Assembly (NCBI RefSeq): GCF_900091595.1
Contig: NZ_FMCW01000027.1
Location: 62,001-126,000 of the forward strand
Origin: Micromonospora haikouensis
GTDB lineage: Bacteria > Actinomycetota > Actinomycetes > Mycobacteriales > Micromonosporaceae
Length of the DNA: 64,000 nt
Direction: 5' to 3'
Part shown: positions 28,915-49,937 of the stretch, piece by piece
Layout of the letters: each line of letters begins with the position of its first letter
Position numbering within the stretch: position 1 is the stretch's first letter
Translations under genes and position numbers: made by a program
The notes under the pieces: generated by a model
Told to the model about the DNA's origin: nothing
Databases searched by the model: none
Seen by the model: the letters and a program-made list of their open reading frames with translations, nothing else

Positions 28915-28939
28915 GATCGTCAACCCGAAGTTGACGATC
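28915..28939. promoter_or_regulatory. Perfect palindromic operator 2 upstream of HTH-ClpN
   Basis: GATCGTCAAC (28915-28924), CCGAA, GTTGACGATC (28930-28939): a second 10-bp perfect inverted repeat with a 5-base centre. Its end overlaps the stop codon of the caspase-FtsK gene. Centres of the two palindromes are about 29 bp apart. Confidence 0.7.
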
Positions 28940-31900
28940 ACGCCTCCGCGAGCGCGGTCTGGATCAACTGCTGCCCCTCCCGGCGGCGGACCAGCACCCC
29001 CCGGCCCGGCGGCAGCGGACGCGGGCGCAGGCTCCCGAGGATCGCCCCCTCCCCCCGGTCGCCCGACATCAGCAGCCCGGCCGAGCCCAGCTCCCGCAGG
29101 GTCTGCAGCACCGGCTCGTAGATCGCGCGCCCCGCCCCGCCGCTCCGCCGGGCCAGCACCACGTGCAGGCCGACCTCCCCCGCCACCGGCAGCAACTCCC
29201 GCAGGGCGTGCAGCGGGTTGGTCCCACCCGCCGCCATGAGGTCGTAGTCGTCCACCAGGACGAACAGCTCCGGGCCCCGCCACCAGCTCCGTTCGCGCAG
29301 CTGCTGCGGGGTGACGTCCGGGCCCGGGAGCCGTTCGTGCAGGACGGCACGGATCTCCGCGACCGTCTGGGCGAAGGACTGCTCGGAGGGGGCGTAGTCG
29401 AGCAGGTGCTCCCCCTCGACGGCGCCGAGCAGGCCCCGCCGGTAGTCGGCGAGCACCAGCCGCGCCTCGGCCGGGGAGTGACGCGCGACGACCTGCCGGG
29501 CGACGAGCCGGAGCAGGTTCGTCTTGCCGCACTCGGCGTCGCCGAAGACGACCAGGTGCGGGTCGACCGCCGGGTCGAGCACCACCGGGCCCAGCGTCGC
29601 CTCGTCCAGCCCGATCGGCAGGCCCCGCTCCCCGGCGGGGCACGCGCGGTCCAGCTCGGCGACCGTCAGCCGCAGCGGCAGCAGCCGCACCGGCGGCGCC
29701 GCCTCCCCCGGCCACGCCGCGGCCACCCCCGCCACCAGCTCGGCCGTCGCCTCCGCCAGATCGGCGACGCCGTCGCGGCCGTCGACGCGCGGCAGGGCGG
29801 CCAGGAAGTGCGCCCGGTCGCCCGCGAGGCCGCGCCCGGGGGACCGCTCCGGGACGTTCGCCGCCGCCCGCCGACCCATCTCCGACTCGTACGGGTCGGC
29901 GAGGCGCAGCTCCAGCCGGGTTTCGAGGCGGTCCCGCAGGCCGGGCCGGAAGTCGCCCCAGCGGCCGGAGGTGACCAGCAGGTGCACCCCGTAGGACAGC
30001 CCACGGACGGCGACGTCGGCGACGGCCTCCTCCAACTCCTCGTGCTCCCGCCGCAGCGTCGGCCAGCCGTCGACCACGAGGAACACGTCGCCGAACGGGT
30101 CGTCGGGATACGCGCCCTCGGCACGCAGCCGGCGGTAGGCCGCCATGGACTCGATCCCCAGCTCCGCGAACCGGTCCTCGCGCCGGTCGAGGATCCCCAC
30201 CACCTCGGCGACGGTCCGGCCCACCGCCTCGACGTCACGCCGCCCGGCCACCCCGGACACGTGCGGCAACCCGGCGAGGACGCCCAGCCGCCCGCCGCCG
30301 AAGTCGAGGCAGAAGAACTGCACCTCCCGGGGGCTGTGCGTCAGCGCCAGCGCGGCCACCACCGTCAGCACCAGCGTGCTCTTGCCGGTCAGCGGCGCGC
30401 CCACCACGGCGACGTGCCCGCCCGCGCCGGCCAGCTCCACCGTCAGCGGGTCGCGGCGCTGCTCGTAGGGGCGGTCGACGACCCCGACGGGCACGGCGAG
30501 GAACCCCGGCAGGTGGGCCGGCGGCCCGGGGGCGGTCGGGTCGACCGGCGGCAGCAGCCCACCCAGGGTGGGCGAGGCGTCCAGCGGCGGCAACCAGACC
30601 TGCCGGGCACGGGGTCCAGCGCCGCGCAGCCGGCCCACCACGATGTCCGCGAGGCTGTGCCCGGCCAGGTCGGGCGGCGGCGGCTCCGCGTAGCCGGTGC
30701 GCAGGCCCACCGGCCCCGAGACGTACGCCGCCCGGAACCGGACCGGATCACCCGACCCGGTGCGCAGGTAGCCGCTCCCGGGGAGCGACGGCAACCCGTA
30801 CGCGTCGGGCACCCCGATCACCAGCCGGCTCTCCTGCGCCGTGAACGTCCGCAGGGCGATCCGGTACGACAGGTAGGTGTCCAGCCCGCGCAGCCGGCTC
30901 TCCTCGACCCGCTGGCCGGCCAGCAGCAGGTGCACGCCCAGCGCCCGGCCGACCCGGCCGATCCGGGCGAACAGCTCGCCCAGGTCCGGCTGGACGGTGA
31001 GCAGGTCGGCGAACTCGTCGCAGACGACCAGCAGCACCGGCAGCTCCACCAGCTCCGCACCGGCCGCCCTGGCCTGCTCGTACGCCCACCAGTTCGGCAG
31101 CGTGCCGGCGGACCGCAGCAGCTCCTGCCGGCGGGCCAGCTCGCCGCCGAGCGCGTCCCGCAGCCGGTCGACCAGGGCCGGGTCCTCGGCGAGGTTGGCG
31201 ACGTGCCCGGCGACGTGCGGCAGCCCGTCCAGCCCGGCGAAGGCCGCGCCGCCCTTGAAGTCCATCAGCAGCACGTTGAACCGGGCGACGGAGTGCCGGG
31301 CCGCGAGCCCGAGCACGAGCGCCCGCAGGAGCTCGCCCTTGCCCGACGCGGGCGCGCCGACCAGCACCCCGTGCGGGCCCATCCCGTCCCGGGCGGACTC
31401 CTTCAGGTCCAGCAGCACCGGCCGGCCGTCCTCCGCCACGCCGATCGGCAGCCGCAGGAAGTCCGGGCCGAGCGGCTCGTCGGCGCCCGCGAAGTCGACC
31501 AGCGCCGCGTGGTCCGCCACCCCGATCAGGGCCAGCGCCTCGTCGGTGTGCCCGGAGAACGGCGCCCGCACCCGCCGGCCGGCGACGGCCTCCTCGGGCT
31601 CCCGCGCGCTCGACCACGCCTGCGCGATCAGCGACACCATGAGCCCGGCCTCGTCCACCGCGCCGGGAGCCTCGGTCTCCGGATCGGCGTCGCTGACCGT
31701 CAGATCCGGCAGGGCGATGCGGAAGGTGCGCCGGCCGTGGATCGCCCAGCCCGGCAGGTTCGCCGGCAGCCGCCCCGCCAGGTCGGGGCTGACCCGCGAC
31801 TCCTGCGGCTGGGACAGCCGGGTCTCGATCCTGGCCTGCGGCAGCTCCAGCAGCTCCTCCGGGATCGCCCGCCAGCTGCGCTCGACGACGGCCACGTGCA

Positions 31901-33281
31901 CGCCGTACCCCAGGCCCTTGTTGGCCAGGTCGACCACCCGGGCGGTGAAGTCCGGCAGCAGGGCGGCGAAGTCCTGCCAGCGGTCGACCACCAGGAACAC
32001 GTCCGGGTACGGCCCGCCGTCCAGGGTGGCGCGCCGGGCGCGCAGGCTCGTCGGCGACTCCATCTCGTAGCGGCGGAACAGCTTCTTGCGGGCGAGGACG
32101 TCCCGCTCCAGCCGGTCCAGCAGCGCGCCGACCTCGGCGACCTCGTCGTCGCCGACGACCTCGCGCACGTGCGGCAGGCGGCGCATCGGGCCCAGCCAGT
32201 TCCCGCCGGACTCCAGGCAGTGGAAGGCCACCTCCTGGTCGGAGTGGGTCAGCGCCAGCCCGCCGACGATGGTGCGCAGCAGCGTGGTCTTGCCGGTCCC
32301 GGCCCGCCCCACCACCAGCAGGTGCCCCTCGGACGAGGCGAGGTCGAGCCAGAGCGGCTCGCCGGCCGGCTGGTCGAGCCGGTGGGCCTGGCCGACCGGC
32401 ACCTTGAGCAGCCCGCGCCGCCGCCAGTCGACCGCGCAGAGCCGCACGTCGTCGGTCGGCTCCAGCGGCCCGAGCAGGTCGCCGAGGCGCAGGTCCCGGT
32501 GGTCGCGCCGCTGCCGCTGGCGGTGGTGGCCCTCCCGCGACAGCGCGATGTGGATCTCGTCGCTGACCTGCCCGAACTGCGACGGCGACTGCGACGTCGT
32601 GCGCCTCGGCAGCTCCATCCGCACATACCGCCACAGGTCGTCCGGGGTGATCCGGCCCTGGCCCGTGAGGTCGGCGGCACCGGTGCTGAGGCCCTGGATG
32701 ACAGTCTCGGTGAACGCCGAGCGCAGCCGGGGCGCGGCCCCCGACGCGGGGCGGCCGTCGTCGGCGCGCTCCACCGAGTTGGTGGCGGTGATCACGTACC
32801 GGCCGTACCCGGTCTTCAGCTCACCGTCGATGGCCAGGTCGTCGGTGGTCTTGAGGCCCTGCCCCTCGAAAGCGCCGCTGTAGCAGCAGTCGAGCAGGAG
32901 CACGAAGCTCGCCGCGTCCGACTCGTCGAGCAGCTCGCGGACGAACGACGCCGACACCGCCGTGGAGGAGAGCCGGTCGACCTCCGTGTTCGACACCGCC
33001 AGGTGCAGCCGGCCCCGCTTGCTGCTGCGCACCCCGTGACCGGAGAAGTAGAGCAGGACCAGGTCCTCCGGGCCGGCCGCGCGCAGCATCGACTCCATGG
33101 CCCGCTCGATCGAGCTCTTCGACTCGTTCTCCAGCAGCACGGTCTGGTCGAATGCGCCGATGTCCGCGTCGGCGAGCAGGCTCAGCAGGTCCCGCGCCTC
33201 CTCCCGGGGCGCGTACAGGTCGCTCAGCGCCTCGTCGACGTACCGGTCGTTGGCGATCAGCAGGGCGCGGCGCTGTCCCAC
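28938..33281 (-). CDS. Caspase-like protease fused to four EccC/FtsK-type P-loop domains
   Basis: A 1447-residue fusion. Residues 1-250 form a C14 caspase/metacaspase-like domain with H82 in LYFSGHGV and C133 in LLLDCCYSGAF, the expected His-Cys dyad. Four FtsK/HerA-type domains follow, with Walker A motifs GRAGTGKT (325-332), GAPASGKG (642-649), GAPLTGKS (961-968) and GDAECGKT (1247-1254). Only the second has the canonical Walker B LLVVCDEFADL and the EccC-like DFKGGAAF. The others read VVDRW, VVDGW and LVDDYD and may bind but not hydrolyse ATP. EccC of type VII secretion has the same one-active, several-degenerate logic but no caspase. The GTG start lies two bases after the EACC1-like gene. 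Confidence 0.9.
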   Translation of the reverse strand: MGQRRALLIANDRYVDEALSDLYAPREEARDLLSLLADADIGAFDQTVLLENESKSSIERAMESMLRAAGPEDLVLLYFSGHGVRSSKRGRLHLAVSNTEVDRLSSTAVSASFVRELLDESDAASFVLLLDCCYSGAFEGQGLKTTDDLAIDGELKTGYGRYVITATNSVERADDGRPASGAAPRLRSAFTETVIQGLSTGAADLTGQGRITPDDLWRYVRMELPRRTTSQSPSQFGQVSDEIHIALSREGHHRQRQRRDHRDLRLGDLLGPLEPTDDVRLCAVDWRRRGLLKVPVGQAHRLDQPAGEPLWLDLASSEGHLLVVGRAGTGKTTLLRTIVGGLALTHSDQEVAFHCLESGGNWLGPMRRLPHVREVVGDDEVAEVGALLDRLERDVLARKKLFRRYEMESPTSLRARRATLDGGPYPDVFLVVDRWQDFAALLPDFTARVVDLANKGLGYGVHVAVVERSWRAIPEELLELPQARIETRLSQPQESRVSPDLAGRLPANLPGWAIHGRRTFRIALPDLTVSDADPETEAPGAVDEAGLMVSLIAQAWSSAREPEEAVAGRRVRAPFSGHTDEALALIGVADHAALVDFAGADEPLGPDFLRLPIGVAEDGRPVLLDLKESARDGMGPHGVLVGAPASGKGELLRALVLGLAARHSVARFNVLLMDFKGGAAFAGLDGLPHVAGHVANLAEDPALVDRLRDALGGELARRQELLRSAGTLPNWWAYEQARAAGAELVELPVLLVVCDEFADLLTVQPDLGELFARIGRVGRALGVHLLLAGQRVEESRLRGLDTYLSYRIALRTFTAQESRLVIGVPDAYGLPSLPGSGYLRTGSGDPVRFRAAYVSGPVGLRTGYAEPPPPDLAGHSLADIVVGRLRGAGPRARQVWLPPLDASPTLGGLLPPVDPTAPGPPAHLPGFLAVPVGVVDRPYEQRRDPLTVELAGAGGHVAVVGAPLTGKSTLVLTVVAALALTHSPREVQFFCLDFGGGRLGVLAGLPHVSGVAGRRDVEAVGRTVAEVVGILDRREDRFAELGIESMAAYRRLRAEGAYPDDPFGDVFLVVDGWPTLRREHEELEEAVADVAVRGLSYGVHLLVTSGRWGDFRPGLRDRLETRLELRLADPYESEMGRRAAANVPERSPGRGLAGDRAHFLAALPRVDGRDGVADLAEATAELVAGVAAAWPGEAAPPVRLLPLRLTVAELDRACPAGERGLPIGLDEATLGPVVLDPAVDPHLVVFGDAECGKTNLLRLVARQVVARHSPAEARLVLADYRRGLLGAVEGEHLLDYAPSEQSFAQTVAEIRAVLHERLPGPDVTPQQLRERSWWRGPELFVLVDDYDLMAAGGTNPLHALRELLPVAGEVGLHVVLARRSGGAGRAIYEPVLQTLRELGSAGLLMSGDRGEGAILGSLRPRPLPPGRGVLVRRREGQQLIQTALAEA

Positions 33282-36983: not shown

Positions 36984-38219
36984 TCAGGCCGACACGACCA
37001 CCTGTGCGGGGGTCGACCGGCTGGTGGTGGTGCCGTCGCCAAGCTGCCCGGAGATGTTGTTGCCCCAGCACCACAGGCCACCGTCGGTGCGGATCGCGCA
37101 GCCGTGGTAGGTCACGGCGAAGCCGTCGGTCCAGGTGGTGGCGGTGCCGATCCGGGTCGGGGTGTTCCGGTGGGTGGTGGTGCCGTCGCCCAACTGCCCG
37201 GAGTTGTTGTTACCCCAGCACCACAGGCTGCCGTCGGTGCGGACCGCGCACGACGAGTCGACGCCGGCGTCGACCCGGGCCCACGTGGTGGCGGTGCCGA
37301 CCTGGACCGGCGTGGTCTGGAAACCGGTGCCGCCACCGAGCTGGCCGTACCCGTTCTCGCCCCAGCACCACAGGGTCCCGTCGGTGCGGACCGCGCAGGT
37401 GTGCGCGTAGCCGGTCGTCACGCCGGCCCAACTGGTCGCGGTCCCCACCTGCGTCGGCGTCGACCGGTAGCTCAGGATGCCGAGGCCGAGCTGGCCGTCC
37501 GTGCTGTCACCCCAGCACCACAGGGTCCGGTCGGTGCGGACGGCGCAGGTGTGCGCGTATCCGGTCGAGACGCTCGCCCAGGTGGTCGCCGTGCCGACCT
37601 GCAGCGGGGTGGTCGTCCAGTAGGGAGACGAACCGGTGCCCAGTTGCGTGTTGCGGTTCAGGCCCCAGCACCACAGGGTGCCGTTGGTCCGGACGCCGCA
37701 GGTGTGGTTGGCGGCGACGCTGACGCTGGCCCAGTTGGTGGCGTCACCGACCTGCACCGGGGCGGTGCGCCTCGTGGAGGTCCCGTCACCGAGCTGCCCG
37801 TTGGAGTTGCCGCCCCAGCACCACAGCGTCCCGTCCGTGCGCACCCCGCACGTGCTGCTGGTGCCGGCGTCGATGCGCGCCCAGGTGGTGGCCGCACCGG
37901 CCTGGACCGGGGTGGTGCGGTTGGTGGTGGTCCCGTCGCCGAGCTGGCCGCTGAGGTTGTCGCCCCAGCACCACAGCGTTCCGTCGGCGGGAATCGCGCA
38001 GGTGTGCGCGTTACCCGCGGCCACCCGGGCGACCGGCACGGCGGCGAGCGAGGCGTTCAGCGACCCGCGCGCGGCGGAGCCCGTGCCCGCGGTGGCCGGG
38101 CCCGCCGTGACTCCGACGGCGAGCGCCGCGATCCCGATGGCTGCCGTCGCCGCGGCGACGGCTGTTCTCGCCGCCCGCCCCCAGCGCGCCCACCGACTGC
38201 CGTCCTGATGTTCGTTCAT
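36984..38219 (-). CDS. Secreted RCC1-type seven-repeat beta-propeller protein
   Basis: A 411-residue protein. After an R/A-rich signal region (AVAAATAAIGIAALAVGVTA) come seven repeats of about 50 residues. Each has the form W-x-x-[IV]-x-x-G-x-x-x-[TS]-C-[AG]-[IV]-R-T-D-G-T-L-W-C-W-G, then GQLGDGTTTxRxTPxQVG. Seven repeats close a regulator-of-chromosome-condensation-type propeller. Two cysteines per repeat could form disulfides outside the cell. Eukaryotic RCC1 activates Ran; bacterial secreted members have no fixed role and may bind ligands or surfaces. The ATG at 38219 follows GGGGAG. The DNA repeats are recombination-prone. Confidence 0.9.
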   Translation of the reverse strand: MNEHQDGSRWARWGRAARTAVAAATAAIGIAALAVGVTAGPATAGTGSAARGSLNASLAAVPVARVAAGNAHTCAIPADGTLWCWGDNLSGQLGDGTTTNRTTPVQAGAATTWARIDAGTSSTCGVRTDGTLWCWGGNSNGQLGDGTSTRRTAPVQVGDATNWASVSVAANHTCGVRTNGTLWCWGLNRNTQLGTGSSPYWTTTPLQVGTATTWASVSTGYAHTCAVRTDRTLWCWGDSTDGQLGLGILSYRSTPTQVGTATSWAGVTTGYAHTCAVRTDGTLWCWGENGYGQLGGGTGFQTTPVQVGTATTWARVDAGVDSSCAVRTDGSLWCWGNNNSGQLGDGTTTHRNTPTRIGTATTWTDGFAVTYHGCAIRTDGGLWCWGNNISGQLGDGTTTSRSTPAQVVVSA

Positions 38220-38642
38220 GTGCTGTTCTCCCCACAAAACGTCGTTTCCTGCACGGCGGAGGCGGCGTTGCCCCGGCAGGCCGCCAGCGGCCCGCCACGT
38301 TGATAAGTTGACCTTATGCATCGACTAGCGTCAATCTATGGCGCTCCCGTGCCGCCGCTCCTGATGGCGCACACCGCTGGGGAGACACCGGGAGAGGCGC
38401 ACGACGTGCCCGCGGTGCCCGGCTCCGCTTCCGCAGGCTCCATCTCCGGTCTCACTGCCCATGCAGGACCGGATGGTCTTCGAATCGTCGACGGCATCCG
38501 TACCGCACGGAGCCGGACGCAGCCCGGACCGTCCGCTGGCGTCGAACCGATTCGGCAAGACCCTAGAAGCATCGAGTGAGATATGTCAATGCCATGTCCG
38601 GCAGGTTGCGGCCCCGACAACCCCGTACGCTCAGTCCTCCCC
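38220..38642. other. Intergenic region upstream of the RCC1 gene
   Basis: About 420 bp. On the minus strand TTGACG occurs at 38334-38329, a possible -35 for the RCC1 gene, but a good -10 is not evident. A frame at 38316-38579 stays open but has no ribosome site and an unconvincing composition. Nothing else is supported. Confidence 0.4.
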
Positions 38643-39884
38643 CTAGACGAGCGCGAACCCGTGCCCCGGCAGACACCGCGCCCGGCACCCGGTCCGGAAC
38701 ATCCGGCTGCCTTCGGGCGCGCCCAGCGGATCGGGCAGGAAACGGGCCAGGGTCAGCTCCGGCCGGTCGAGGTACCCGACGGCCAGCATCGGGCCGGCCA
38801 GAAACAGCTCCCCGACCTCCCCCGCCGGCACGGGCCCGAAGCCGGCGTCGAGAACGTGCCACCGGTGCTGCGGCAACGGCGTCAGCACCTCGCCCCCCGG
38901 CACCACCGCCGCCATCATCGAGGTCTCGGCGAAGCCGAACAGTTCCATCTCGTCGGCCCGGCCGGCGTTCCGGTCGATCCGCATCGACCACCGTGCCGGC
39001 CCCGCCGTCTCGTCGTCCCGGGCACCCGCGCCCGGCGCGTGCGCCGCCGGCAGGAGCAGTTCCGCGCCGGTGAGCAGCGCGCGCGTCGCCGCCACCACAC
39101 CCACCAGCGGGCCCGCCGACGCCGGCACGCTCACCCGGTCCCCGTGGCCCGACGGCGGCAGACCACAGTCGCCGGCCAGCCAGCTCAGCTGCGAACCACG
39201 CCACACCACACCCACCGCGCCGTCGGCCAGCGGCACCACCAGGGACGGCCCGGGCTCGTCCCCCGCCGGCACGGCCAGCGACTCCTCGGTGCGGCCGTTG
39301 GCCTGCCAGAACGCCCCGGTCACGCTCCGCCAGCGCTGCCGGACCACCGGCCACCCGCCGGGCGTCGCCGCCCCCGCCGGGGTCAGCACCAGCTCCGGCT
39401 GCGCCTCCCGCACCGCCGCGTCCGGGCGACTGCCGACACACAGGACACAACTGGCTCCGGTGGCCAGCACCGCGAGGGCCGCCGCGACCAGGTCCTCGGC
39501 GCGTTCGCCGACGACGGCGACCCGCCGGCCGGGGCCCGCCCCGACCGCGACCAGCCGGTCGGCGACGTCGTCGATCGACTCCCACAGTCGTCGGTAGGAC
39601 AGCCGCAGGTCGCCGACGCACAGCGCCGGCGCGTCGGGCTGCTCCCCCGCGGCCTTGCGGAGCAGACCGACGAGGCTGATGTCGGTCGCGAGGGAGCGGG
39701 TCGGGTCGTTGGCCCGCGCCACGCCGGTCAGCTCCGCCACCTGTCGGCCACAGGCCTGGATGGTGCCGGCGAACGGCATGGCCCGCCACCCCGCGGGCGG
39801 CCGTCGACCGATGGGCCAGACCGCGAAATCCCGGGCCTGGCTGACCACCAGTTGAAAGTAGCGGGACTCCCTCCACCCAGACAT
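38643..39884 (-). CDS. MbtH-like domain fused to a truncated, probably inactive adenylation domain
   Basis: A 413-residue fusion. Residues 5-60 read like MbtH: YFQLVVSQARDFAVWPIGRR, then PAGWRAMPFAG, keeping the WP and PxGW landmarks. Residues 65-413 resemble an NRPS/acyl-CoA adenylation N-domain: LSYRRLWESIDDVADRLVA, FGFAETSMM in place of the A5 box, and GELFLAGPMLAVGYLDRPEL (A7). The A3 P-loop is replaced by LVVPLADGAVGVVWRG, RTGD by RTGC (397-400), and the C-terminal subdomain with the catalytic lysine is absent. I read it as a non-catalytic protein, not a broken gene. GGGAG precedes the ATG. It lies downstream of a two-component system. Confidence 0.75.
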   Translation of the reverse strand: MSGWRESRYFQLVVSQARDFAVWPIGRRPPAGWRAMPFAGTIQACGRQVAELTGVARANDPTRSLATDISLVGLLRKAAGEQPDAPALCVGDLRLSYRRLWESIDDVADRLVAVGAGPGRRVAVVGERAEDLVAAALAVLATGASCVLCVGSRPDAAVREAQPELVLTPAGAATPGGWPVVRQRWRSVTGAFWQANGRTEESLAVPAGDEPGPSLVVPLADGAVGVVWRGSQLSWLAGDCGLPPSGHGDRVSVPASAGPLVGVVAATRALLTGAELLLPAAHAPGAGARDDETAGPARWSMRIDRNAGRADEMELFGFAETSMMAAVVPGGEVLTPLPQHRWHVLDAGFGPVPAGEVGELFLAGPMLAVGYLDRPELTLARFLPDPLGAPEGSRMFRTGCRARCLPGHGFALV

Positions 39885-40040
39885 GCGGCGCTCCCAGTTC
39901 CGGAGACTGGCCCGGCATACATCCCGCCGGCGCGAGGCCGGGAGAACACCGGGCGAAACCTCGACGACATCCGACCGAACCAACCTAGGCGACGCCGGTC
40001 ACGGCCCGGTCATGCCTCACGGTGCGCGCCGCGTGGGTCG

Positions 40041-40724
40041 TCAGCGGGCGCTGGGCCGGTCGTCCATCGGCTTGATCAGCCGGGCGGCGGTCGCCTTGCG
40101 GATCGCGTCCACCCGGGACACCGCCTGCAGCTTGGCGTAGATGTTGGTGAGGTGCCGCTTGACCGTGGCCTCGGTGATGAAGAGCCGGCTGGCGATCTGC
40201 GCGTTGCTCATCGCCTCCGCGGTGAGCCGGAGGACCTCCAGCTCCCGCGAGGTCAACGGCGTGCCGTTCGTCCGCGGCTTCTGCCGGTCCAGCCGCTCCA
40301 CCGTCTCGCGGGAGACCGCCAGCAGGACGCTCTGCGTGGGCCGGCGGACCACCGAGCGCACCGCGGCGACCAGGTCGTCCCGCAGGATCGTCTTGAGCAG
40401 GTATGCCACGGCGCCGGCCTCCAGCAGATCGTGCACCATGTCCGGGTCGTCGTGCATGGTCAACACGATCACCCGGGTCTCCGGTGCCGCCCGTCGGGCC
40501 TGTCGGATCACCGCCGCCGCGCCCGGTCCCGGCATCTCCACGTCGAGCAGCAGCACGTCCGGGCGCAGGCGCATCACGAGGGCCAGCGCCTCCGGGCCGG
40601 AGGACGCCTCACCGACCACCGCGAACTCCGGCTCGGTGGAGAGCATCTCCTTGATGCCGTCGCGCAGCAGGGTGTGGTCGTCGGCCAGGCACACCCTGAT
40701 CTGGGACCGGTCCGTGTCGGTCAC
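40041..40724 (-). CDS. NarL/LuxR-type response regulator
   Basis: A 227-residue regulator. The receiver domain has phospho-acceptor D61 in LLLDVEMPGPG, DD at 15-16, and the T and K switch residues in VIVLTMHDD and AYLLKTI. The LuxR HTH is LTSRELEVLRLTAEAMSNAQ continuing IASRLFITEATVKRHLTNIY. The GTG at 40724 shares GTGA with the kinase stop. It sits with its kinase beside the biosynthetic cluster and likely regulates part of it. Confidence 0.92.
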   Translation of the reverse strand: MTDTDRSQIRVCLADDHTLLRDGIKEMLSTEPEFAVVGEASSGPEALALVMRLRPDVLLLDVEMPGPGAAAVIRQARRAAPETRVIVLTMHDDPDMVHDLLEAGAVAYLLKTILRDDLVAAVRSVVRRPTQSVLLAVSRETVERLDRQKPRTNGTPLTSRELEVLRLTAEAMSNAQIASRLFITEATVKRHLTNIYAKLQAVSRVDAIRKATAARLIKPMDDRPSAR

Positions 40725-41803
40725 AGGCCCGCCTCGGCGAACGGGATCCGCACCTCGACCCGGGTGCCCTGACCCGGCGCGCTGATCAGCTCGACCTGCC
40801 CGTGCAGCAACTGGGCCCGCTCGAACATCGACGGCAGGCCGCCCCGGGCACGGTCCGGATCTGTCGTGTCGAAGCCGCACCCGTCATCGACGACCGTGGC
40901 GGCCACCGCGTTGTCTCCCACGTCCACCGCGATGTCCACCCGGCTCGGTGCGGCGTGCCGCAACGCGTTGCGGGCGGCCTCCCGCAGGATCAGGTAGAGC
41001 TCCTCCAGCACGTCCGGCGGGAGCACCTTGAGATCGCCGTTGGTCACCAGCGAGAACTGCATCGGAGGCGGCACGTTGGCCTCCAGATAGCCGCGCAGGG
41101 TGCGTTCCAGGCCGTATTCGCCCACCGAGCGGCGGAGCTCGGCGGAGAGGCCGCGCACCGTGCGGACCGCCTCGTCGAGCGACTCGATGGCCGAGTCGAT
41201 CTTCGCGCGGGCCTGTTCCGGGTCACGGTCGGCGTAGTGCCGGTGCAGGTCGAGCCGGTGCAGGGTGAGCCCCATCTCGTGCAGGACCCGGTCGTGCAGC
41301 TCGCGGGCGATCCGGGTGCGCTCCTCCTGCCGGGACGCCTGCAGCTTCTCCATGAGGAAGCCCACGTACGACAGCGAGGCCAGTGCGACCCGGGCCATGA
41401 TCGCCTCGTGCAGCGCGCGGCTGAGTCGCAGCGCCCCGGCGCTGTCCGTGGCCGGCAGACCACGCGTGATGATCGGCAGCATCACCTCGAAGAGGGTGGT
41501 CGCGGCGCGGAGCGACTGGACCGGGTGGATCCCGCGCCGGGCCCGGTCGGCTCCGATGTCGACGGCGAACAACCGAGCCTCGCCGACCAGGTCCATCGGT
41601 GGCGCGTCCGTCATGGACACCCGGGCCGCGACATCACTGAGCACCGCCTGCACCTGGGCCGCGAGCTGCGCCAGGACGTCGGGACCATTGGCCAGGTCAC
41701 TCTCCTGCTGACGCAGTGAGTGTTGAAACGCTTCGACAATCTCGCGCGCCATCGAGGACAGTTCGGCCTCGGCCACGGGCTGCATCGCGTACGGATTCGC
41801 CAC
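40721..41803 (-). CDS. NarL-family sensor histidine kinase (HisKA_3), cytoplasmic
   Basis: A 360-residue kinase without transmembrane segments. An all-helical input region (1-155) precedes the HisKA_3 motif RTRIARELHDRVLHEMG with H170. The HATPase domain has LREAARNALRHAAPSRVDIA, VVDDGCGFDTTD and GGLPSMFERAQLLHGQVEL. The GTG at 41803 follows a GGGGGGG run; an ATG six codons downstream is an alternative. It overlaps its regulator by four bases. The input signal is probably intracellular; its identity is unknown. Confidence 0.9.
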   Translation of the reverse strand: MANPYAMQPVAEAELSSMAREIVEAFQHSLRQQESDLANGPDVLAQLAAQVQAVLSDVAARVSMTDAPPMDLVGEARLFAVDIGADRARRGIHPVQSLRAATTLFEVMLPIITRGLPATDSAGALRLSRALHEAIMARVALASLSYVGFLMEKLQASRQEERTRIARELHDRVLHEMGLTLHRLDLHRHYADRDPEQARAKIDSAIESLDEAVRTVRGLSAELRRSVGEYGLERTLRGYLEANVPPPMQFSLVTNGDLKVLPPDVLEELYLILREAARNALRHAAPSRVDIAVDVGDNAVAATVVDDGCGFDTTDPDRARGGLPSMFERAQLLHGQVELISAPGQGTRVEVRIPFAEAGL

Positions 41804-41931: not shown

Positions 41932-42882
41932 TCAGCCGGGGAACAGCCCCAGCACGCTCAGGTGCACGGCGTACTGGCTGACCATGAAGAGCCGGTACGG
42001 GCGGCGCTGGAGCCACCGTCCGGTGGCGCCGGCCCCGGTGAGCAGGCAACCGACCACCCCCGTCGCGCCGATGGCCAGCACCACCGCCGGCAGGAGCAGC
42101 ACCGGAGTCAGCACCAGGGCACCCGTCAGCAGCACGCCGCCGGCCACCACCACCAGGACGGCCATCAACCGGCGGGCGGGCCGGTCGCCCAGCAGCACCG
42201 GCAGGGTGCGCCGGCCGGCCGCCCGGTCACCGGCCACATCGGAGAGGTCCTTGGTGGTGCCGCCCAGCGCCATCCACAGCGACATCGCCACCGACAGCAC
42301 CACCAGCTCGGGACCCACCGGGCCGCCAGACGCGGCGGCCCCGGCCAGGTAGGTGACGATCCCACCGGAGGCGACCACCAGCACGAAGCCGAACATGTTG
42401 CCCTTCTGCGGCCGGGGACCGGCCGAGTAGAGCCAGCCGAGGACCAGCATCAGCGCCACCAGCCCGGCCAGGCGCGCCGAGACCGCCGCCGCCGAGACCA
42501 GGGCGAGCCCGGCCAGGGCCACCACGATCCGCCGGGCGACGCCGACGGGGAGCGCGCCGGTGGCGAGCGGACGCGGCGAGCCGTTGCGCCGGTCCTCGAC
42601 CTGGTCGGAGAGCCCGTTCAGCAGGTAGACGAACCAGGTCGCGCAGAGCCAGGCGAACGCGCCGACCAGCAGCGACCCGGGCCGGGTCAGCACCGCCTGC
42701 GGGGCGGCCACGGCCGCGCCCGCGAGGAAGCGCAACTGGAAGACGACCTGAACGACGGGGCGGGCCTCCCGCCAGCTCGCCGCCACGTGCCGGCAGCCTT
42801 CCGCGACCGCCACCGACGACGGCCGTACGACACCGACGGACCGGGAGTACCGGTCGAACCGAATAACCGAGTGGTAGGTCAT
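41932..42882 (-). CDS. UbiA-family prenyltransferase
   Basis: A 316-residue membrane prenyltransferase. The first Asp-rich motif and the following loop read NGLSDQVEDRRNGSPRPLAT; the second is GGTTKDLSDVAGDRAAGRRT. Around eight TM helices are visible (for example LVALMLVLGWLYS and LLLPAVVLAIGATGVVGCLL). UbiA enzymes attach prenyl groups to aromatics or polyprenyl-P acceptors; this one resembles the chlorophyll-synthase/aromatic-type branch more than the copy at 48906. The start is uncertain: ATG 42882 or GTG 42933, neither with a clear ribosome site. It diverges from the SARP gene. Confidence 0.87.
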   Translation of the reverse strand: MTYHSVIRFDRYSRSVGVVRPSSVAVAEGCRHVAASWREARPVVQVVFQLRFLAGAAVAAPQAVLTRPGSLLVGAFAWLCATWFVYLLNGLSDQVEDRRNGSPRPLATGALPVGVARRIVVALAGLALVSAAAVSARLAGLVALMLVLGWLYSAGPRPQKGNMFGFVLVVASGGIVTYLAGAAASGGPVGPELVVLSVAMSLWMALGGTTKDLSDVAGDRAAGRRTLPVLLGDRPARRLMAVLVVVAGGVLLTGALVLTPVLLLPAVVLAIGATGVVGCLLTGAGATGRWLQRRPYRLFMVSQYAVHLSVLGLFPG

Positions 42883-43083: not shown

Positions 43084-43794
43084 ATGTCAGACATCGCAGT
43101 CACGTCGAGCGCCGAACTGCTCGGCGGATTCCGGATCACCATCGACGGTCACACCGTCACCAACTGGCGGGCCGGCAAGTCCCAGGCGCTCGTGCAATAC
43201 CTGCTGCTGCACCGGGGCCGACCGGTCAGCCGGGACACCCTCCGCTCGACGCTGTGGCCGCACCTGCCCCCGTCGGCCGGCGCCACCTCGGTGAAGGCCG
43301 CGGTGCACGGCGCCCGGCGCGCCCTCTGCGCGACGGGCGAGCGGCACGCCGCGGTGCGGATCGCCTCGGTGGACGGCGGCTACCTGCTCGAGGCCGACCA
43401 GCTCCGGATCGACGTGGCCACCTTCGAACGCCGGATCGCCGCCGCCACCGCCGCGGTCGCCGCCGGCGACCGGGTGCTGGCCGCCGGGCACCTGCGGCGC
43501 GCGGTGGAGGTCTACCGGGGCGACCTGCTGCCCGCGCAGGACGCGGAGTGGGCGGTGGCCGAGCGGGAGTGGTGCCGCGTCCGCGCCCTGCACGCCCTGC
43601 GGCTCCTCAGCGACCTGGCCCTGGAGTCCGGGGACTGGTGGGCCGCGATCCGCTGGAACCGCCGGGCGTTGGAGGTGGACCCGTACGACCCGGCGGCCTT
43701 CACCGTCCTGGCCGACTGCCACCGCCAGCTCGGCATCACGGCGGCGGCGCTGCGCTGGGACGAGCTCGCCCAGAGCCGGCTGGCGCAGGTGTGA
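43084..43794 (+). CDS. SARP/AfsR-type transcriptional activator
   Basis: A 236-residue regulator. An OmpR-like winged HTH (about 8-95: SAELLGGFRITIDGHTVTNW, RGRPVSRDTLRSTLWP, SVKAAVHGARRAL) is followed by a bacterial transcriptional activation domain (about 100-235: IDVATFERRI, LRRAVEVYRGDLLP, WNRRALEVDPYDPAAFTVLA). This is the layout of small SARPs that switch on antibiotic clusters. No NB-ARC or TPR part is attached. ATG 43084 was chosen; an in-frame GTG at 43057 would add nine residues. It is co-directional with the 75-residue peptide gene and likely activates the operon at 44319. Confidence 0.88.
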   Translation: MSDIAVTSSAELLGGFRITIDGHTVTNWRAGKSQALVQYLLLHRGRPVSRDTLRSTLWPHLPPSAGATSVKAAVHGARRALCATGERHAAVRIASVDGGYLLEADQLRIDVATFERRIAAATAAVAAGDRVLAAGHLRRAVEVYRGDLLPAQDAEWAVAEREWCRVRALHALRLLSDLALESGDWWAAIRWNRRALEVDPYDPAAFTVLADCHRQLGITAAALRWDELAQSRLAQV

Positions 43795-46413: not shown

Positions 46414-47841
46414 ATGACCGAGCTACTGACCATCGACGACGCGGAGCAGCTCTCCGTCGCCGAGGTGCAGGACCTCTACCGCAAGCACGTCAACAAGAGC
46501 CAGGTCAGCCTGATGACCTCGTTCGGCTTCGGCCGGGAGCTGGTCGACCACGCCGAGGGCCCCTGGATCCACACCCGGGACGGCCGGCGGATCCTCGACT
46601 TCACCGGCGGCGTCGGGGTGCTCAACCACGGGCACAACCACCCCCGGATCCTGGCCGCACGGCAGCGCTTCCAGCAGCAGCGGCGGATGGAGGTGCACAA
46701 GACCTACTTCTCGCCGTACCTGGCCGCCCTGTCGCACAACCTGGCCGCCGTGTTCCCCGGCGACCTCGACATGTCCTTCCTGCCCAACTCCGGTGCCGAG
46801 GCGGTGGAGGGCGCGGTCAAGCTCGCCTACAAGTACCACGGCGGCAAGCGCAACACGATCATGCGCAGCGACATCAGCTTCCACGGCAAGCTGCTCGGTT
46901 CGGGCAGCCTCACCGGCAGCTCGCAGAACCACTTCACCTTCCCCGGCATCCCGGGGGTGGTGAGCTTCCCGTACGACGACCTGGCCGCGGTCCAGGCGGC
47001 CGTCGACGCGACCCGGGACCGTCGGGGCAAGTGCGACGTGTACGCGATCCTCATCGAACCCTTCAGCGCCTCGACCATGCGCTGGTGCTCGGAGGAGTTC
47101 CTGCGCGGGCTGCGCGAGCTGTGCACCCGCGAGGACATCGTGCTCATCTTCGACGAGATCTACACCGGCTGGGGCAAGACCGGCACGATGTTCTACTTCA
47201 TGCGCTACCCGGGGCTGATCCCGGACGTGGTGACCACGTCGAAGTCCTTCGGCGGCGGCAAGTCCTCGATCTCCGCGTACGTGGCCCGGCGGCCCATCTT
47301 CCACAAGGCGTACGAGAGCTTCAACGACGCGCTGCTGCAGAGCACCAGCACCACCTACTACGGCTTCGGCGAGGAGACCGCCACCGCGATCGAGGCGATC
47401 AACGTGGCGGTGGAGGAGGACTTCCCCGCCCGGGCCCGCGACATCGAGCGGATCCTGGGCCCCGGGTTGGCCCGGATCGCCAAGGAGCACCCGGACGCGG
47501 TCGCCGAGGTCCGCGGCGCTGGCGCCCTGTGGGGGGTGTTCCTCGACGCGCCGCGCGTGCTGGACCTGGTCACCAAGCTGGCGCCCAGCGGCCTGGCCAA
47601 GGACCCGCAGTTCGGCACGAAGCTCGTCACCTGCGCGGTCATCAGCGCCCTCTACCGGGACCACGACATCTACACGTACTACACGCTCAACGGCAAGAAC
47701 CCACTGGTGGTCGGCCCGTCGCTGGTGACCGGCACGGCCGAGGTGGAGCACTTCCTCGACCGCCTGGACCAGACCCTCGCCCAGGGCCTGCCCCGGCTGG
47801 TCACCCGTTTCGTCAAGGAGAAGGTGTCGTCGCTGTGGTGA
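46414..47841 (+). CDS. Class III PLP-dependent aminotransferase
   Basis: A 475-residue fold-type I aminotransferase (GABA/ornithine-like). Motifs are LDFTGGVGVLNHGHNHPRIL, FLPNSGAEAVEGAVKLAYKY, IVLIFDEIYTGWGKTG and the PLP lysine K277 in TTSKSFGGGKSS. RAGALWGVFLDAP-like sequence (AGALWGVF) follows. The N-terminal helix resembles members acting on larger carrier- or sugar-bound substrates; the substrate is not deducible. GAGGAAAGG precedes the ATG. It overlaps the epimerase gene by four bases, suggesting that a keto group is made and then aminated in this pathway. Confidence 0.92.
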   Translation: MTELLTIDDAEQLSVAEVQDLYRKHVNKSQVSLMTSFGFGRELVDHAEGPWIHTRDGRRILDFTGGVGVLNHGHNHPRILAARQRFQQQRRMEVHKTYFSPYLAALSHNLAAVFPGDLDMSFLPNSGAEAVEGAVKLAYKYHGGKRNTIMRSDISFHGKLLGSGSLTGSSQNHFTFPGIPGVVSFPYDDLAAVQAAVDATRDRRGKCDVYAILIEPFSASTMRWCSEEFLRGLRELCTREDIVLIFDEIYTGWGKTGTMFYFMRYPGLIPDVVTTSKSFGGGKSSISAYVARRPIFHKAYESFNDALLQSTSTTYYGFGEETATAIEAINVAVEEDFPARARDIERILGPGLARIAKEHPDAVAEVRGAGALWGVFLDAPRVLDLVTKLAPSGLAKDPQFGTKLVTCAVISALYRDHDIYTYYTLNGKNPLVVGPSLVTGTAEVEHFLDRLDQTLAQGLPRLVTRFVKEKVSSLW

Positions 47842-48887
47842 ATCAGAACGCAAAGACGGTGGTGGTGACCGGCGGCAGCGGAATGCTGGGCGGGCACCTG
47901 GTGCGGGCGCTGGCCGCCGACGGCTGGCGGGTGCGCGGCCTGGACGTGCGCGACCCGATCGAGCCGGTGCGGGGCGTCGAGTACACGGTCGCCGACGTGC
48001 GGGACCGGGCCAGGGTCGGTGCCGCCCTGGCCGGCGCGGACGCCCTGGTGCACACCGCCGCCGCCCTGCCCAGCTACCCCGAGGACGAGATCCGCTCGAT
48101 CATCGTGGGCGGCACGGAGACGGTGCTCGACGCCGCCGCCCGCGCCGGCACGGCCCGGGTGGTGCACGTCTCCTCGACCGCCGTGTACGGCCTGCCGAAC
48201 GTGGTGCCCACCACCGAGGAGTACCCGCGCGAGCCGGTCGACCCGTACAGCCGGGCCAAGGCCGGCGCGGAGGAGGTCGCCGAGCGGTACCGCGCGGCCG
48301 GCATGGTGCTGCCGATGCTGCGGCCCAAGACGTTCCTCGGGCCGGGCCGGATGGGGCTGTTCTCGATGCTCTTCGAGTGGGCCGAGGAGGGCCGCAACTT
48401 CCCGGTGCTCGGCAAGGGCGACGTGCGGATCCAGATGCTGGCGATCGACGACCTGGTCGACGCGGTACGCACCGTGCTGCACGCACCGGACGACGTCGCC
48501 AACGACACGTTCAACATCGCCGCCGACCAGTTCGCCACCCTGCGGGAGGACTTCCAGGCGGTGCTGGACGCCGCCGGCCACGGCAAGCGCGTCGTCTCGG
48601 TGCCGGTGCGCCCCGCCGTCGCCGCGCTGGAGCTGCTGCAGCGGCTGAAGCTCTCCCCGGTCTACGGACGCCTCATCCACAAGCTGCGGGCCGATTCCTA
48701 CGTCAGCGTCGACAAGGCCCGCGACGTGCTCGGCTGGACGCCCCGACTGTCCAACCGCGATGCCATCCTGCGCACCTACGACTGGTGGCGGGCCAACAAC
48801 CGCACCGCCGCACCGACCTCGTCCGGCCGGACCAGCCGGGACCCCTGGAAGCAGGGCGCCCTCGGCCTGGCCAAGGCCATCTTCTGA
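47838..48887 (+). CDS. NAD-dependent epimerase/dehydratase (extended SDR)
   Basis: A 349-residue extended SDR. The nucleotide motif is VVVTGGSGMLGGHLVRALAA; the catalytic Ser-Thr region is VVHVSSTAVYG and the YxxxK is DPYSRAKAGAEE. QMLAIDDLVDAVRTVL and the C-terminal KARDVLGWTPRLS are typical of nucleotide-sugar or polyprenyl-sugar epimerases and 3-beta-HSD-like enzymes. The GTG overlaps the aminotransferase stop (GTGA). It may create the keto or epimerised sugar that the aminotransferase uses; this is inference from context. Confidence 0.88.
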   Translation: MNQNAKTVVVTGGSGMLGGHLVRALAADGWRVRGLDVRDPIEPVRGVEYTVADVRDRARVGAALAGADALVHTAAALPSYPEDEIRSIIVGGTETVLDAAARAGTARVVHVSSTAVYGLPNVVPTTEEYPREPVDPYSRAKAGAEEVAERYRAAGMVLPMLRPKTFLGPGRMGLFSMLFEWAEEGRNFPVLGKGDVRIQMLAIDDLVDAVRTVLHAPDDVANDTFNIAADQFATLREDFQAVLDAAGHGKRVVSVPVRPAVAALELLQRLKLSPVYGRLIHKLRADSYVSVDKARDVLGWTPRLSNRDAILRTYDWWRANNRTAAPTSSGRTSRDPWKQGALGLAKAIF

Positions 48888-48905
48888 TCGGCACCGGAGG
48901 TAACC

Positions 48906-49892
48906 GTGACTGTCCTCGTCGACCCGCCGACCCTCGACCGGCCCGCTCCGGTCGCCCCCACGGCCGCCCTGTCCACCGGCTCCCGCGCCACCGACCGCAA
49001 CCTGGTGCGTGACCTGACCACCCTGATCCGGCCGCACCAGTGGGCGAAGAACCTGCTGGTGGTGCCGCTGGTGCTGATCGACACCCCCCGGCTCGGCCTG
49101 GGTGTCCTCGGCCGGGTGAGCTGGGCGGTGCTGCTGTTCACCCTGGTCTCCGCGCTGGTCTACGTCTGGAACGACGTCTACGACCGGCACCGCGACCGGG
49201 CGCATCCCACCAAACGCAACCGACCGATCGCCTCCGGCCGGGTGAGCGTGCCCACCGCGTACGCCTTCGGTGCCCTGCTCGCCACCGCGCTGGTCGCGGC
49301 GGTGGCGTTCGGACCGGCGTTCCCGTGGTGGCCGCTGGCGGCCTACCTGACGCTGAACGTCGCCTACAGCAGGGGGCTCAAGCACCTGCCGCTGCTGGAC
49401 GTGCTCGTGGTGGCCGGTGGCTTCCTGCTCCGGGTGGTGCAGGGCTACCTGGCCGCCGGGGTCGCCGTGTCGAGCTGGCTGCTGATCGCCGTCTTCTCCC
49501 TCTGCCTGCTGCTCATCCTCGGCAAGCGGCGGCACGAGATGGCCGTCGGTGGCAGCGCCCACCGGCCCTCGCTGGCCGGCTACTCGGTCCAGTACCTGGA
49601 CCTGCTGATCGTGCTCTGCGCCGCGGTCGCGATCAGCGGGTTCCTCGGCCACGTGCAGGCCACCATCCCCACCCCGTACCAGGCGCTGGCGCTGGTCGGC
49701 TCGACCCCGTTCGCGCTCTTCGCGGTGGCCCGCTACCTCCAGGTGGTGGTCGTCGACGGCGACGGCGGCGAACCCACCCGGGTGCTGCTGAAGGACCGGG
49801 CGATGCTGGTCAACGCCCTGCTGTGGGGCGTGCTGATCGGCGGCGTCCTGCTCGCCACCCAACACCCGGCCCTGCTCGCCCTCGCCCGCTGA
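48906..49892 (+). CDS. UbiA-family decaprenyl-phosphate phosphoribosyltransferase-like enzyme
   Basis: A 328-residue membrane transferase close to mycobacterial DPPR synthase (UbiA, Rv3806c). Hallmarks are LIRPHQWAKNLLVVPL (residues 40-55), WNDVYDRHRDRAHPTKRNRP (88-107) with the Asp-rich metal site, and YSRGLKHLPLLDVLVVAGGF. DPPR synthase moves 5-phosphoribose from PRPP to decaprenyl phosphate, the first step to decaprenyl-phospho-arabinose. The N-terminal 35 residues are an extra disordered tail. GGAGGTAACC precedes the GTG. With the phosphatase-fold gene two genes on, it suggests a polyprenyl-P-pentose donor. Confidence 0.9.
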   Translation: MTVLVDPPTLDRPAPVAPTAALSTGSRATDRNLVRDLTTLIRPHQWAKNLLVVPLVLIDTPRLGLGVLGRVSWAVLLFTLVSALVYVWNDVYDRHRDRAHPTKRNRPIASGRVSVPTAYAFGALLATALVAAVAFGPAFPWWPLAAYLTLNVAYSRGLKHLPLLDVLVVAGGFLLRVVQGYLAAGVAVSSWLLIAVFSLCLLLILGKRRHEMAVGGSAHRPSLAGYSVQYLDLLIVLCAAVAISGFLGHVQATIPTPYQALALVGSTPFALFAVARYLQVVVVDGDGGEPTRVLLKDRAMLVNALLWGVLIGGVLLATQHPALLALAR

Positions 49893-49937
49893 CGATCCCG
49901 ACCCACCTCACCCACCCCCTCCTGAGGAGACAGCCCC

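What the first reader, a model, noticed from the sequence alone, without database searches (positions are those of the whole stretch)
38643..39884. MbtH-like domain fused to an adenylation pseudo-enzyme
Known: MbtH proteins bind and activate NRPS adenylation domains. Here an MbtH-like segment (residues 5-60) is joined to an A-like N-domain that lacks the A3 loop, has RTGC for RTGD and ends before the lysine-bearing C-subdomain. The reading frame is intact and has a ribosome site, so it is kept for some purpose. No NRPS gene is in the window. It may bind adenylates or act as a decoy or regulator.
Basis: partly seen in the sequence, partly recalled or inferred. Interest (0 to 1): 0.66.

Follow-up and report, generated by a model that had tools for sequence, protein, structure and literature searches.

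The report
Dead adenylation enzyme with built-in chaperone
A bacterial gene joins a small helper protein of antibiotic-making enzymes to a stripped-down, inactive copy of the enzyme it normally helps, and related bacteria keep this pair near a signalling system, which suggests that a dead enzyme has been given a regulatory job.

Summary
The 413-residue ORF (39884-38643, minus) joins an MbtH-like domain to an adenylation (A) core that lacks the A3 loop and the RTGD aspartate and ends before the C-subdomain. It is not recent decay: none of 12 homologues in the same taxonomic family has A3, RTGD, A8 or A10. Ten form one clade (99/92), and two close pairs show purifying selection (dN/dS 0.36, 0.29). 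The best structural match is SlgN1 with its C-subdomain removed.

New here: the gene belongs to a cassette. The 10 homologues found independently all lie near one type of histidine kinase and LuxR-type regulator; two more were found through that kinase. UbiA1 is present in 11 of 11 testable loci. Eight of nine loci where the gene follows the regulator carry a SARP-type operator just upstream. Selection keeps MbtH, A1-A2, the post-A3 helix and A5-A6, but hardly the substrate pocket.

I favour a non-catalytic, protein-binding regulator of the cassette over an adenylate binder. A helper for a synthetase in trans is the main rival: two divergent homologues adjoin an NRPS. No function was shown. 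It is a new variant of the SlgN1/NikP1-type fusion.

The parts
38643..39884 (-). MbtH-pseudo-adenylation fusion gene, 413 aa
   Evidence: 12 homologues (itself included) with the same truncation
39744..39869 (-). MbtH-like domain (residues 6-47); Trp23 and Trp33 of the MLP pocket kept in 12 of 12 homologues
38667..39677 (-). A-domain-like core (residues 70-406), without the motifs needed for catalysis
39195..39248 (-). place where A3 (TSGSTGxPKG) should be (residues 213-230); motif absent, the strand and helix that follow it are kept
38685..38696 (-). RTGC in place of RTGD (residues 397-400); protein ends 13 residues later, before the A8 hinge
39891..39895 (-). GGGAG ribosome-binding site, conserved in 7 of 7 same-genus loci aligned
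39982..40012 (-). SARP-type operator and -10 box (TGACC-N6-TGACC-N9-TAGGTT), the only such site in the window; in 8 of 9 loci with this gene order (7 exact, G297 with one base different)
40041..40724 (-). LuxR-type response regulator
40721..41803 (-). histidine kinase (HisKA_3, HATPase_c; all-helical N-terminus, apparently cytosolic)
41932..42882 (-). UbiA-family prenyltransferase (UbiA1), part of the cassette
43084..43794 (+). BTAD/SARP-like regulator, candidate reader of the operator
46414..47841 (+). class III aminotransferase of the neighbouring cluster that often travels with the kinase

Best explanation
It is a conserved pseudoenzyme related to MbtH-A fusions of the SlgN1/NikP1 kind. Shown: the adenylation motifs and the C-subdomain are absent in all 12 homologues; two close pairs show purifying selection; the MbtH domain, A1-A2, the helix after A3 and A5-A6 are the best-kept parts; in all 12 known loci the gene lies near one kind of histidine kinase/response regulator pair, and in 8 it has its own SARP-type operator and -10 box. 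Inferred: the MbtH domain stays docked on its own dead A core (Trp23/Trp33 around Pro384, Glu6 to Arg397), and the docked unit works by binding another protein. Most likely that partner belongs to the UbiA1-kinase-regulator cassette, whose output it tunes, with the SARP switching its synthesis on. It neither makes nor needs an adenylate.
For: The 10 homologues found with the protein alone as query all have the kinase and regulator within a few genes, 9 of them directly behind the regulator. Two more were found by way of the kinase, so they are no independent support. Kinase loci exist without the fusion (11 of 23 examined), but no fusion was found without the kinase. UbiA1 and the fusion go together: 11 loci have both, 7 UbiA1 only, 4 neither, 0 fusion only, 1 cut by a contig end. 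The operator/-10 element is in 8 of 9 loci with tandem order and is the only such site in the window; 0.025 are expected in 64 kb (the pattern was read from these loci). Its direct repeat with 11-bp period is the published SARP form (PMC10972967 and PMC5930380, passages), and a SARP-like gene lies 3 kb away. dN/dS is 0.36 (p 1.5e-7) and 0.29 (p 3.7e-13) in two pairs. By segment, over five pairs, it is 0.05-0.41 in MbtH, 0.11-0.38 in A1-A2, 0.10-0.44 in residues 213-245, 0.20-0.58 in A5-A6, and 0.49-1.30 in residues 151-212 and 246-309. The AlphaFold2 model (pLDDT 78.6) has SlgN1 without its C-subdomain as best match (4gr5: Z 31.4, 362 aligned, rmsd 3.1, model 4-413; Foldseek 4gr4: E 2e-22, TM 0.69, rmsd 8.3).
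Against: No interaction with kinase or regulator was tested, and neighbourhood is not contact. The kinase pair persists without the fusion in 11 of 23 loci. Two divergent homologues (G088, G182) sit beside an NRPS rather than behind the regulator. The fusion evolves faster than its neighbours (87% identity against 94-98.5% for kinase, regulator, UbiA1 and aminotransferase between G000 and G012), so constraint is moderate. The SARP-like gene itself is 92% identical, with dN/dS 0.64, not distinguishable from 1 in that pair (p 0.24). A1-A2 and the helix after A3 are kept as well as the docking lobe, so what is kept is not only the docking surface. Eight of the 12 homologues come from one genus. 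The operator is missing in G305, G211, G088 and G182. The salt-bridge pair thought to hold the domains together is complete in only 8 of 12.
Confidence: 0.48

Rival explanations
1. MbtH-like helper in trans: the protein lends its MbtH domain to an NRPS A domain encoded elsewhere in the genome, and the dead A core only keeps it soluble.
For: Trp23/Trp33 pocket kept in 12 of 12. Two divergent homologues adjoin an NRPS of 1174-1182 aa with an intact A domain. The host genome is rich in NRPS parts: 53 condensation and 77 AMP-binding matches. In G088 and G182 both the acidic residue and the Arg of the MLP-A salt bridge are gone, which could free the MbtH domain.
Against: The host has 5 other, better-scoring MbtH places. 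In the 10 other loci no NRPS was seen among the called genes of the stretch fetched (12-20 kb), and the fusion found no A-domain relative there other than its orthologue; these stretches were not profile-scanned gene by gene. In 8 of 12 the salt-bridge pair is kept, so the MbtH domain is probably occupied in cis.
Confidence: 0.27
2. Small-molecule sensor: the A-like core still binds an amino acid, nucleotide or adenylate and reports it to the kinase.
Against: A3 loop, RTGD Asp and C-subdomain are absent in 12 of 12; the A4-A5 stretch is 77 residues against 114 in intact L130; A2-A3 is largely deleted in G211 and A5 in G182; dN/dS is 0.49-1.30 in the pocket segments.
Confidence: 0.12
3. Decaying pseudogene of an MbtH-A enzyme with no function.
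For: Faster evolution than neighbours; patchy presence (7 of 160 genomes of the genus in the direct search).
Against: Open in 12 of 12; same truncation point everywhere; dN/dS well below 1 (p 1.5e-7 and 3.7e-13); conserved operator and ribosome site; one clade across 4 genera.
Confidence: 0.05
4. Decoy: the docking lobe or the MbtH domain sequesters the cell's free MbtH proteins or A domains and so throttles NRPS output.
For: MbtH domain and docking lobe (A5-A6) are among the best-kept parts; the host has many A domains.
Against: The docking site is probably filled by its own MbtH domain; A1-A2 is kept as well; no NRPS was seen near the main clade.
Confidence: 0.08

Closest known systems
SlgN1 (streptolydigin; PDB 4gr4/4gr5) and NikP1, N-terminal MbtH-A fusions
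   Same: Same domain order and fold; best structural match, with the A_sub-deleted construct. The WTDxRP tail is absent here in 12 of 12; PMC6668435 (passages) reports it missing in the fused MLP of ObiF1 too.
   Different: SlgN1 is an active adenylating enzyme with a C-subdomain (recalled). Here the truncation is natural and the A3 loop, RTGD Asp and part of the pocket stretch are lost. Identity in the structural alignment is 26%.
Intact MbtH-A-T protein of the same genus (G091, L130, 650 aa)
   Same: MbtH domain with Gly-Val-Trp-Pro; Pro where MLP-bound A domains have Ala; best non-self match of the profile in 394 genomes of the class (192 bits).
   Different: A3, A5, A7, A8, A10 and a carrier-like tail are present. 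Its neighbours look like a P450 and NRPS-type genes, read by eye and not scanned; the kinase cassette was not looked for there.
Free-standing MbtH-like proteins (PA2412, YbdZ, MbtH)
   Same: Pfam match; beta-beta-beta-alpha pattern in the model; two pocket Trp ten residues apart.
   Different: Ser of SLWP is Ala or Gly in 12 of 12; the WTDxRP end is absent; fused to a dead A core.
SARP operators (PimR, DnrI type)
   Same: Heptamer direct repeats with 4-nt spacer and 11-bp period, next to a -10 box (PMC5930380, PMC10972967, passages).
   Different: Heptamer sequence TGACCGG and the cognate regulator are inferred, not shown.

Membership tests
MbtH-like proteins (PF03621) | Profile match at curated cut-off | tested here: inconclusive
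   24.6 bits against 27 for the protein, 28.4 at genome level; 5 of 8 family members scanned pass
MbtH-like proteins (PF03621) | Two Trp ten residues apart forming the Ala pocket | tested here: met
   W23 and W33 in 12 of 12; role of the pair from PMC6668435 (passages)
MbtH-like proteins (PF03621) | Full consensus NxExQxSxWPx5PxGWx12Lx7WTDxRP | tested here: not met
   Ser absent in 12 of 12, WTDxRP in 0 of 12; WP-x5-PxGW kept in 11 of 12, G297 having PSSW
Active NRPS adenylation domain | A3 phosphate-binding loop TSGSTG | tested here: not met
   0 of 12 fusions; A3-like motif in 27 of 28 class NRPS matches, the miss being a 101-aa fragment
Active NRPS adenylation domain | A7 RTGD aspartate, A8 hinge, A10 lysine in the C-subdomain | tested here: not met
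   0 of 12; present in the L130, L127 and L129 controls. RTGD-like motif in 26 of 28 class NRPS matches, the misses being L063 and the fragment
SlgN1/NikP1-type MbtH-A fusion | MbtH domain N-terminal to an A core with the same fold | tested here: met
   4gr5 Z 31.4 over model residues 4-413
SlgN1/NikP1-type MbtH-A fusion | Adenylates an amino acid | not testable with these tools
   Motifs needed for it are absent
SARP-controlled promoter | Heptamer direct repeats, 11-bp period, before a -10 box | tested here: met
   8 of 9 tandem loci, 7 of them exact
SARP-controlled promoter | Binding by the SARP | not testable with these tools
   SARP-like gene at 43084-43794; its Trans_reg_C match is 25.3 bits against a cut-off of 26.2, BTAD 45.3 against 22.1

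The most novel reading that the evidence does not exclude
NRPS parts turned into a signalling pseudoenzyme: an MbtH domain locked on its own dead A core acts as the adaptor or sensor subunit of a UbiA-kinase-regulator cassette that controls specialised metabolism, so that MbtH proteins are regulators in the literal sense here.
Probability: 0.35. Interest if true: 0.78.

Novelty: new variant of a known kind. Interest (0 to 1): 0.6.

Why it matters
Pseudoenzymes are well known among kinases (recalled), but a search of the open library for pseudoenzyme together with adenylation domain and nonribosomal peptide gave 0 papers. If this family works with the kinase, MbtH-A docking, studied so far as an effect inside synthetases, has been reused in signalling. 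The natural loss of the C-subdomain and active site also separates the docking role of the A core from catalysis, which makes that question directly testable. The kinase cassette lies in several different gene clusters, so its control logic may help to find or wake silent pathways.

Tried and rejected
Recent decay was rejected: shared truncation, one clade, dN/dS below 1. Chance MbtH resemblance was rejected.

Plasmids: 618 of 72,556 records match, none covering 80% of the protein in one place; in 2 records the limit of pieces was reached. Genome contigs: one scan, 1 partial match (residues 293-401), no fusion; records of the host genome may be left out there. Class-wide profile search (394 genomes): only about 4 candidates per genome were scored and the listing is cut, so distant fusions can have been missed. 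Relatives of G182 with its own fusion as query: 4 of 150 genomes matched, only G182 itself at full length.

First tree discarded: nine NRPS rows had been translated from the wrong strand; redone. In one search one row (L087) is a 101-aa fragment, and G305 is a long branch. One origin for all 12 fusions is neither shown nor excluded (70% of bootstrap trees).

Kinase N-terminus (4 pieces scanned): no Pfam domain reached its cut-off (for the host best RsbRD_N, 12.8 bits against 24.3); Foldseek matched mainly kinase cores, such as DesK. The repeat without the -10 box is not unusual in the window when one mismatch is allowed (7 matches, 5.45 expected; the only exact one is this site). The UbiA1-SARP intergenic region was aligned; no further copy of the operator was found in the window or the 20 loci scanned.

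Kinase loci: of 38 family matches I looked at 21 neighbourhoods, plus 2 from the class search of 394 genomes; the other 17, all weaker matches than those 21, were not examined. Absence of the fusion is judged within about 20 kb. G297 starts near a contig end, so its UbiA1 cannot be judged. Start codons were chosen mechanically by script; for G305 the ORF was read from 9358 of L055 and for G211 from a GTG. Segment dN/dS values rest on short stretches and are noisy.

Literature: searches (listings seen) showed no description of this family in the open library held. Most subscription papers are missing; one asked for (a structure paper on an NRPS module with MbtH-like proteins, PMC5077193) is not held. 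Passages only were read of PMC11253843, PMC6668435, PMC7593251, PMC10972967 and PMC5930380. NikP1 and the Ala pocket are from PMC6668435; the Glu6-Arg446 pair of SlgN1 is from PMC7593251. Names of motifs A1 to A10 are recalled.

None of these moved the odds.

Full report
WHAT IS THERE. The ORF at 39884-38643 on the minus strand encodes 413 residues without a stop. Residues 6-47 match MbtH (PF03621, E 1.7e-5, 24.6 bits, cut-off 27). AMP-binding (PF00501, 73.8 bits) matches in two stretches, the better one residues 76-150. The genome-level MbtH search puts the same place at 28.4 bits, over the cut-off. The first 62 residues alone gave 9 PDB hits at E up to 1 (best PA2412, E 2e-4), 8 of them PA2412 or named MbtH-like and one named 'uncharacterized'. 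Of 8 family members scanned, 5 pass the MbtH cut-off.

THE A CORE IS DEAD. Aligned with an intact MbtH-A-T protein of the same genus (L130, 650 aa) and with two NRPS A domains (L127, L129), the fusion lacks A3, has RTGC for RTGD and stops 13 residues later, before the hinge, the C-subdomain and the A10 lysine. These three controls show the motifs. The stretch from A4 to A5 is 77 residues against 114 in L130 (counted from the alignment). An AlphaFold2 model from 10 homologues (mean pLDDT 78.6, pTM 0.81) matches best SlgN1 crystallised without its C-subdomain: Foldseek E 2e-22, TM 0.69, rmsd 8.3; VIA-align Z 31.4, rmsd 3.1, 362 aligned, model residues 4-413. The next rows, A domains without a fused MbtH, start at Z 27.9; all but one of those shown begin at residue 63-69.

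IT IS A FAMILY, NOT DECAY. Full-length homologues occur in 7 of 160 genomes of the genus in the direct search, the host included (56-100% identity), and in three more genomes of three other genera among 354 of the family: G297 (38%), G211 (two pieces, 47 and 53%) and G305 (35%). Two divergent ones, G088 (host genus) and G182, were found beside the kinase. All 12 lack A3, RTGD, A8 and A10. In a tree with 30 NRPS A domains and L130, ten fusions form one clade (99/92). The two divergent ones fall outside, but one origin is not excluded (70% of bootstrap trees). Two close pairs give dN/dS 0.36 (58 of 885 nonsynonymous against 59 of 354 synonymous sites, p 1.5e-7) and 0.29 (p 3.7e-13). Kinase, regulator and aminotransferase of the same pairs give 0.09-0.18, UbiA1 0.26 and the SARP-like gene 0.64 (p 0.24) in one pair. 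So the fusion is constrained, but less than most of its neighbours.

WHAT SELECTION KEEPS. Across five pairs dN/dS is 0.05-0.41 in the MbtH segment, 0.11-0.38 in A1-A2, 0.10-0.44 in residues 213-245 (the strand and helix after the lost A3) and 0.20-0.58 in A5-A6. It is 0.54-1.30 in residues 151-212 and 0.49-1.04 in residues 246-309, where the substrate pocket would be (short segments, so noisy). The last 27 residues vary (0.19-1.01). Trp23 and Trp33, which in MLP-A complexes enclose an A-domain alanine (PMC6668435, passages), are present in 12 of 12. That alanine is, by alignment, Pro384 in 12 of 12, and also Pro in the intact fused L130. An acidic residue at or next to position 6 and Arg of RTG, equivalent by alignment to the Glu6-Arg446 pair of SlgN1 (PMC7593251, passages), are both kept in 8 of 12. 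Both are lost in G088 and G182, the acid in G211 and the Arg in G305. I infer that in the main clade the MbtH domain is docked on its own A core. Coordinates of the model were not available to measure it.

THE CASSETTE. In the window the gene follows, on the same strand, UbiA1 (41932-42882), a histidine kinase (40721-41803) and a LuxR-type regulator (40041-40724). A SARP-like gene (43084-43794) diverges. The kinase has no recognised sensor domain and an all-helical, apparently soluble N-terminus. All 10 homologues found without using the kinase lie within a few genes of it, 9 of them directly behind the regulator. Of 23 kinase loci examined (21 of 38 family matches and 2 from the class search), 12 have the fusion. 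UbiA1 is present in 11 of the 11 of these that can be judged, and in 7 of the 11 without the fusion. The cassette sits in different surroundings. One is an aminotransferase-epimerase-glycosyltransferase cluster: the seven same-genus loci of the main clade, G211, and without fusion G303, G307, G337, G341 and G475. One has condensation-like and carrier genes (G025, G105, G077; no fusion; read by eye, not scanned). One has an NRPS (G088, G182), with a DAHP synthase confirmed in G088.

THE OPERATOR. Between regulator and fusion lies TGACC-N6-TGACC-N9-TAGGTT (39982-40012), in 8 of 9 loci with this order: 7 exact by the search pattern and G297 with one base different. It is nowhere else in the window or in the 20 loci scanned; 0.025 such sites are expected in 64 kb for the looser pattern. 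The pattern was read from these loci, so the expectation is a guide only. Heptamer repeats with an 11-bp period are the published SARP form (PMC10972967, PMC5930380, passages). The exception, G305, also lacks a detected SARP gene in its 20 kb. Binding is not shown.

MECHANISM. The best reading is a non-catalytic protein-binding unit that serves the kinase cassette and is made on demand from the SARP promoter. Steps shown: dead A core, selection, neighbourhood, operator-like element. Steps inferred: cis docking, the partner, the direction of the effect. The strongest rival is an MLP acting in trans on an NRPS; it fits G088 and G182 better than the main clade. I put 0.48 on the first and 0.27 on the second.

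NOVELTY. N-terminal MbtH-A fusions are known (SlgN1, NikP1; PMC6668435, passages). A natural, conserved, catalytically dead form without the C-subdomain, tied to a two-component cassette, was not seen in the listings of the open papers searched. Most subscription papers are not held, so this is a limited statement.

Noticed in passing
window 28938-33281 (-): 1447-aa ORF with a caspase-type peptidase domain, AAA/NACHT-like NTPase matches and four FtsK/SpoIIIE stretches in one chain; a Clp_N protein gene lies just downstream (28156-28887). Looks like a caspase-STAND-type system.
   Followed up: partly
window 46414-50996 (+): Class III aminotransferase, NAD-epimerase, a UbiA-type protein closest to decaprenyl-phosphate phosphoribosyltransferase (below its cut-off), and glycosyltransferase 2: a cluster that travels with the kinase pair also in genomes without the fusion (G303, G307, G475).
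   Followed up: partly
L127 and L129 (G088, G182): UbiA1-kinase-regulator-SARP cassette beside an NRPS and a short MbtH-A homologue; G088 has a DAHP synthase, G182 a chorismate-binding enzyme, P450 and ferredoxin reductase. Points to an unknown chorismate-derived pathway.
   Followed up: partly
L138:4427-5845 (G720): In another family the UbiA1-kinase-regulator cassette has a 472-aa AMP-binding enzyme about 3 kb from the regulator, with no MbtH match; possibly an active counterpart of the dead A core.
   Followed up: no
L124 and L125 (G105): The same gene stretch with the kinase cassette occurs twice about 150 kb apart in one genome, with identical match scores.
   Followed up: no
window 36984-38321 (-): RCC1-repeat protein (seven stretches) with a signal-like N-terminus by eye; a relative near the fusion was seen only in G012 and G097.
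   Followed up: no
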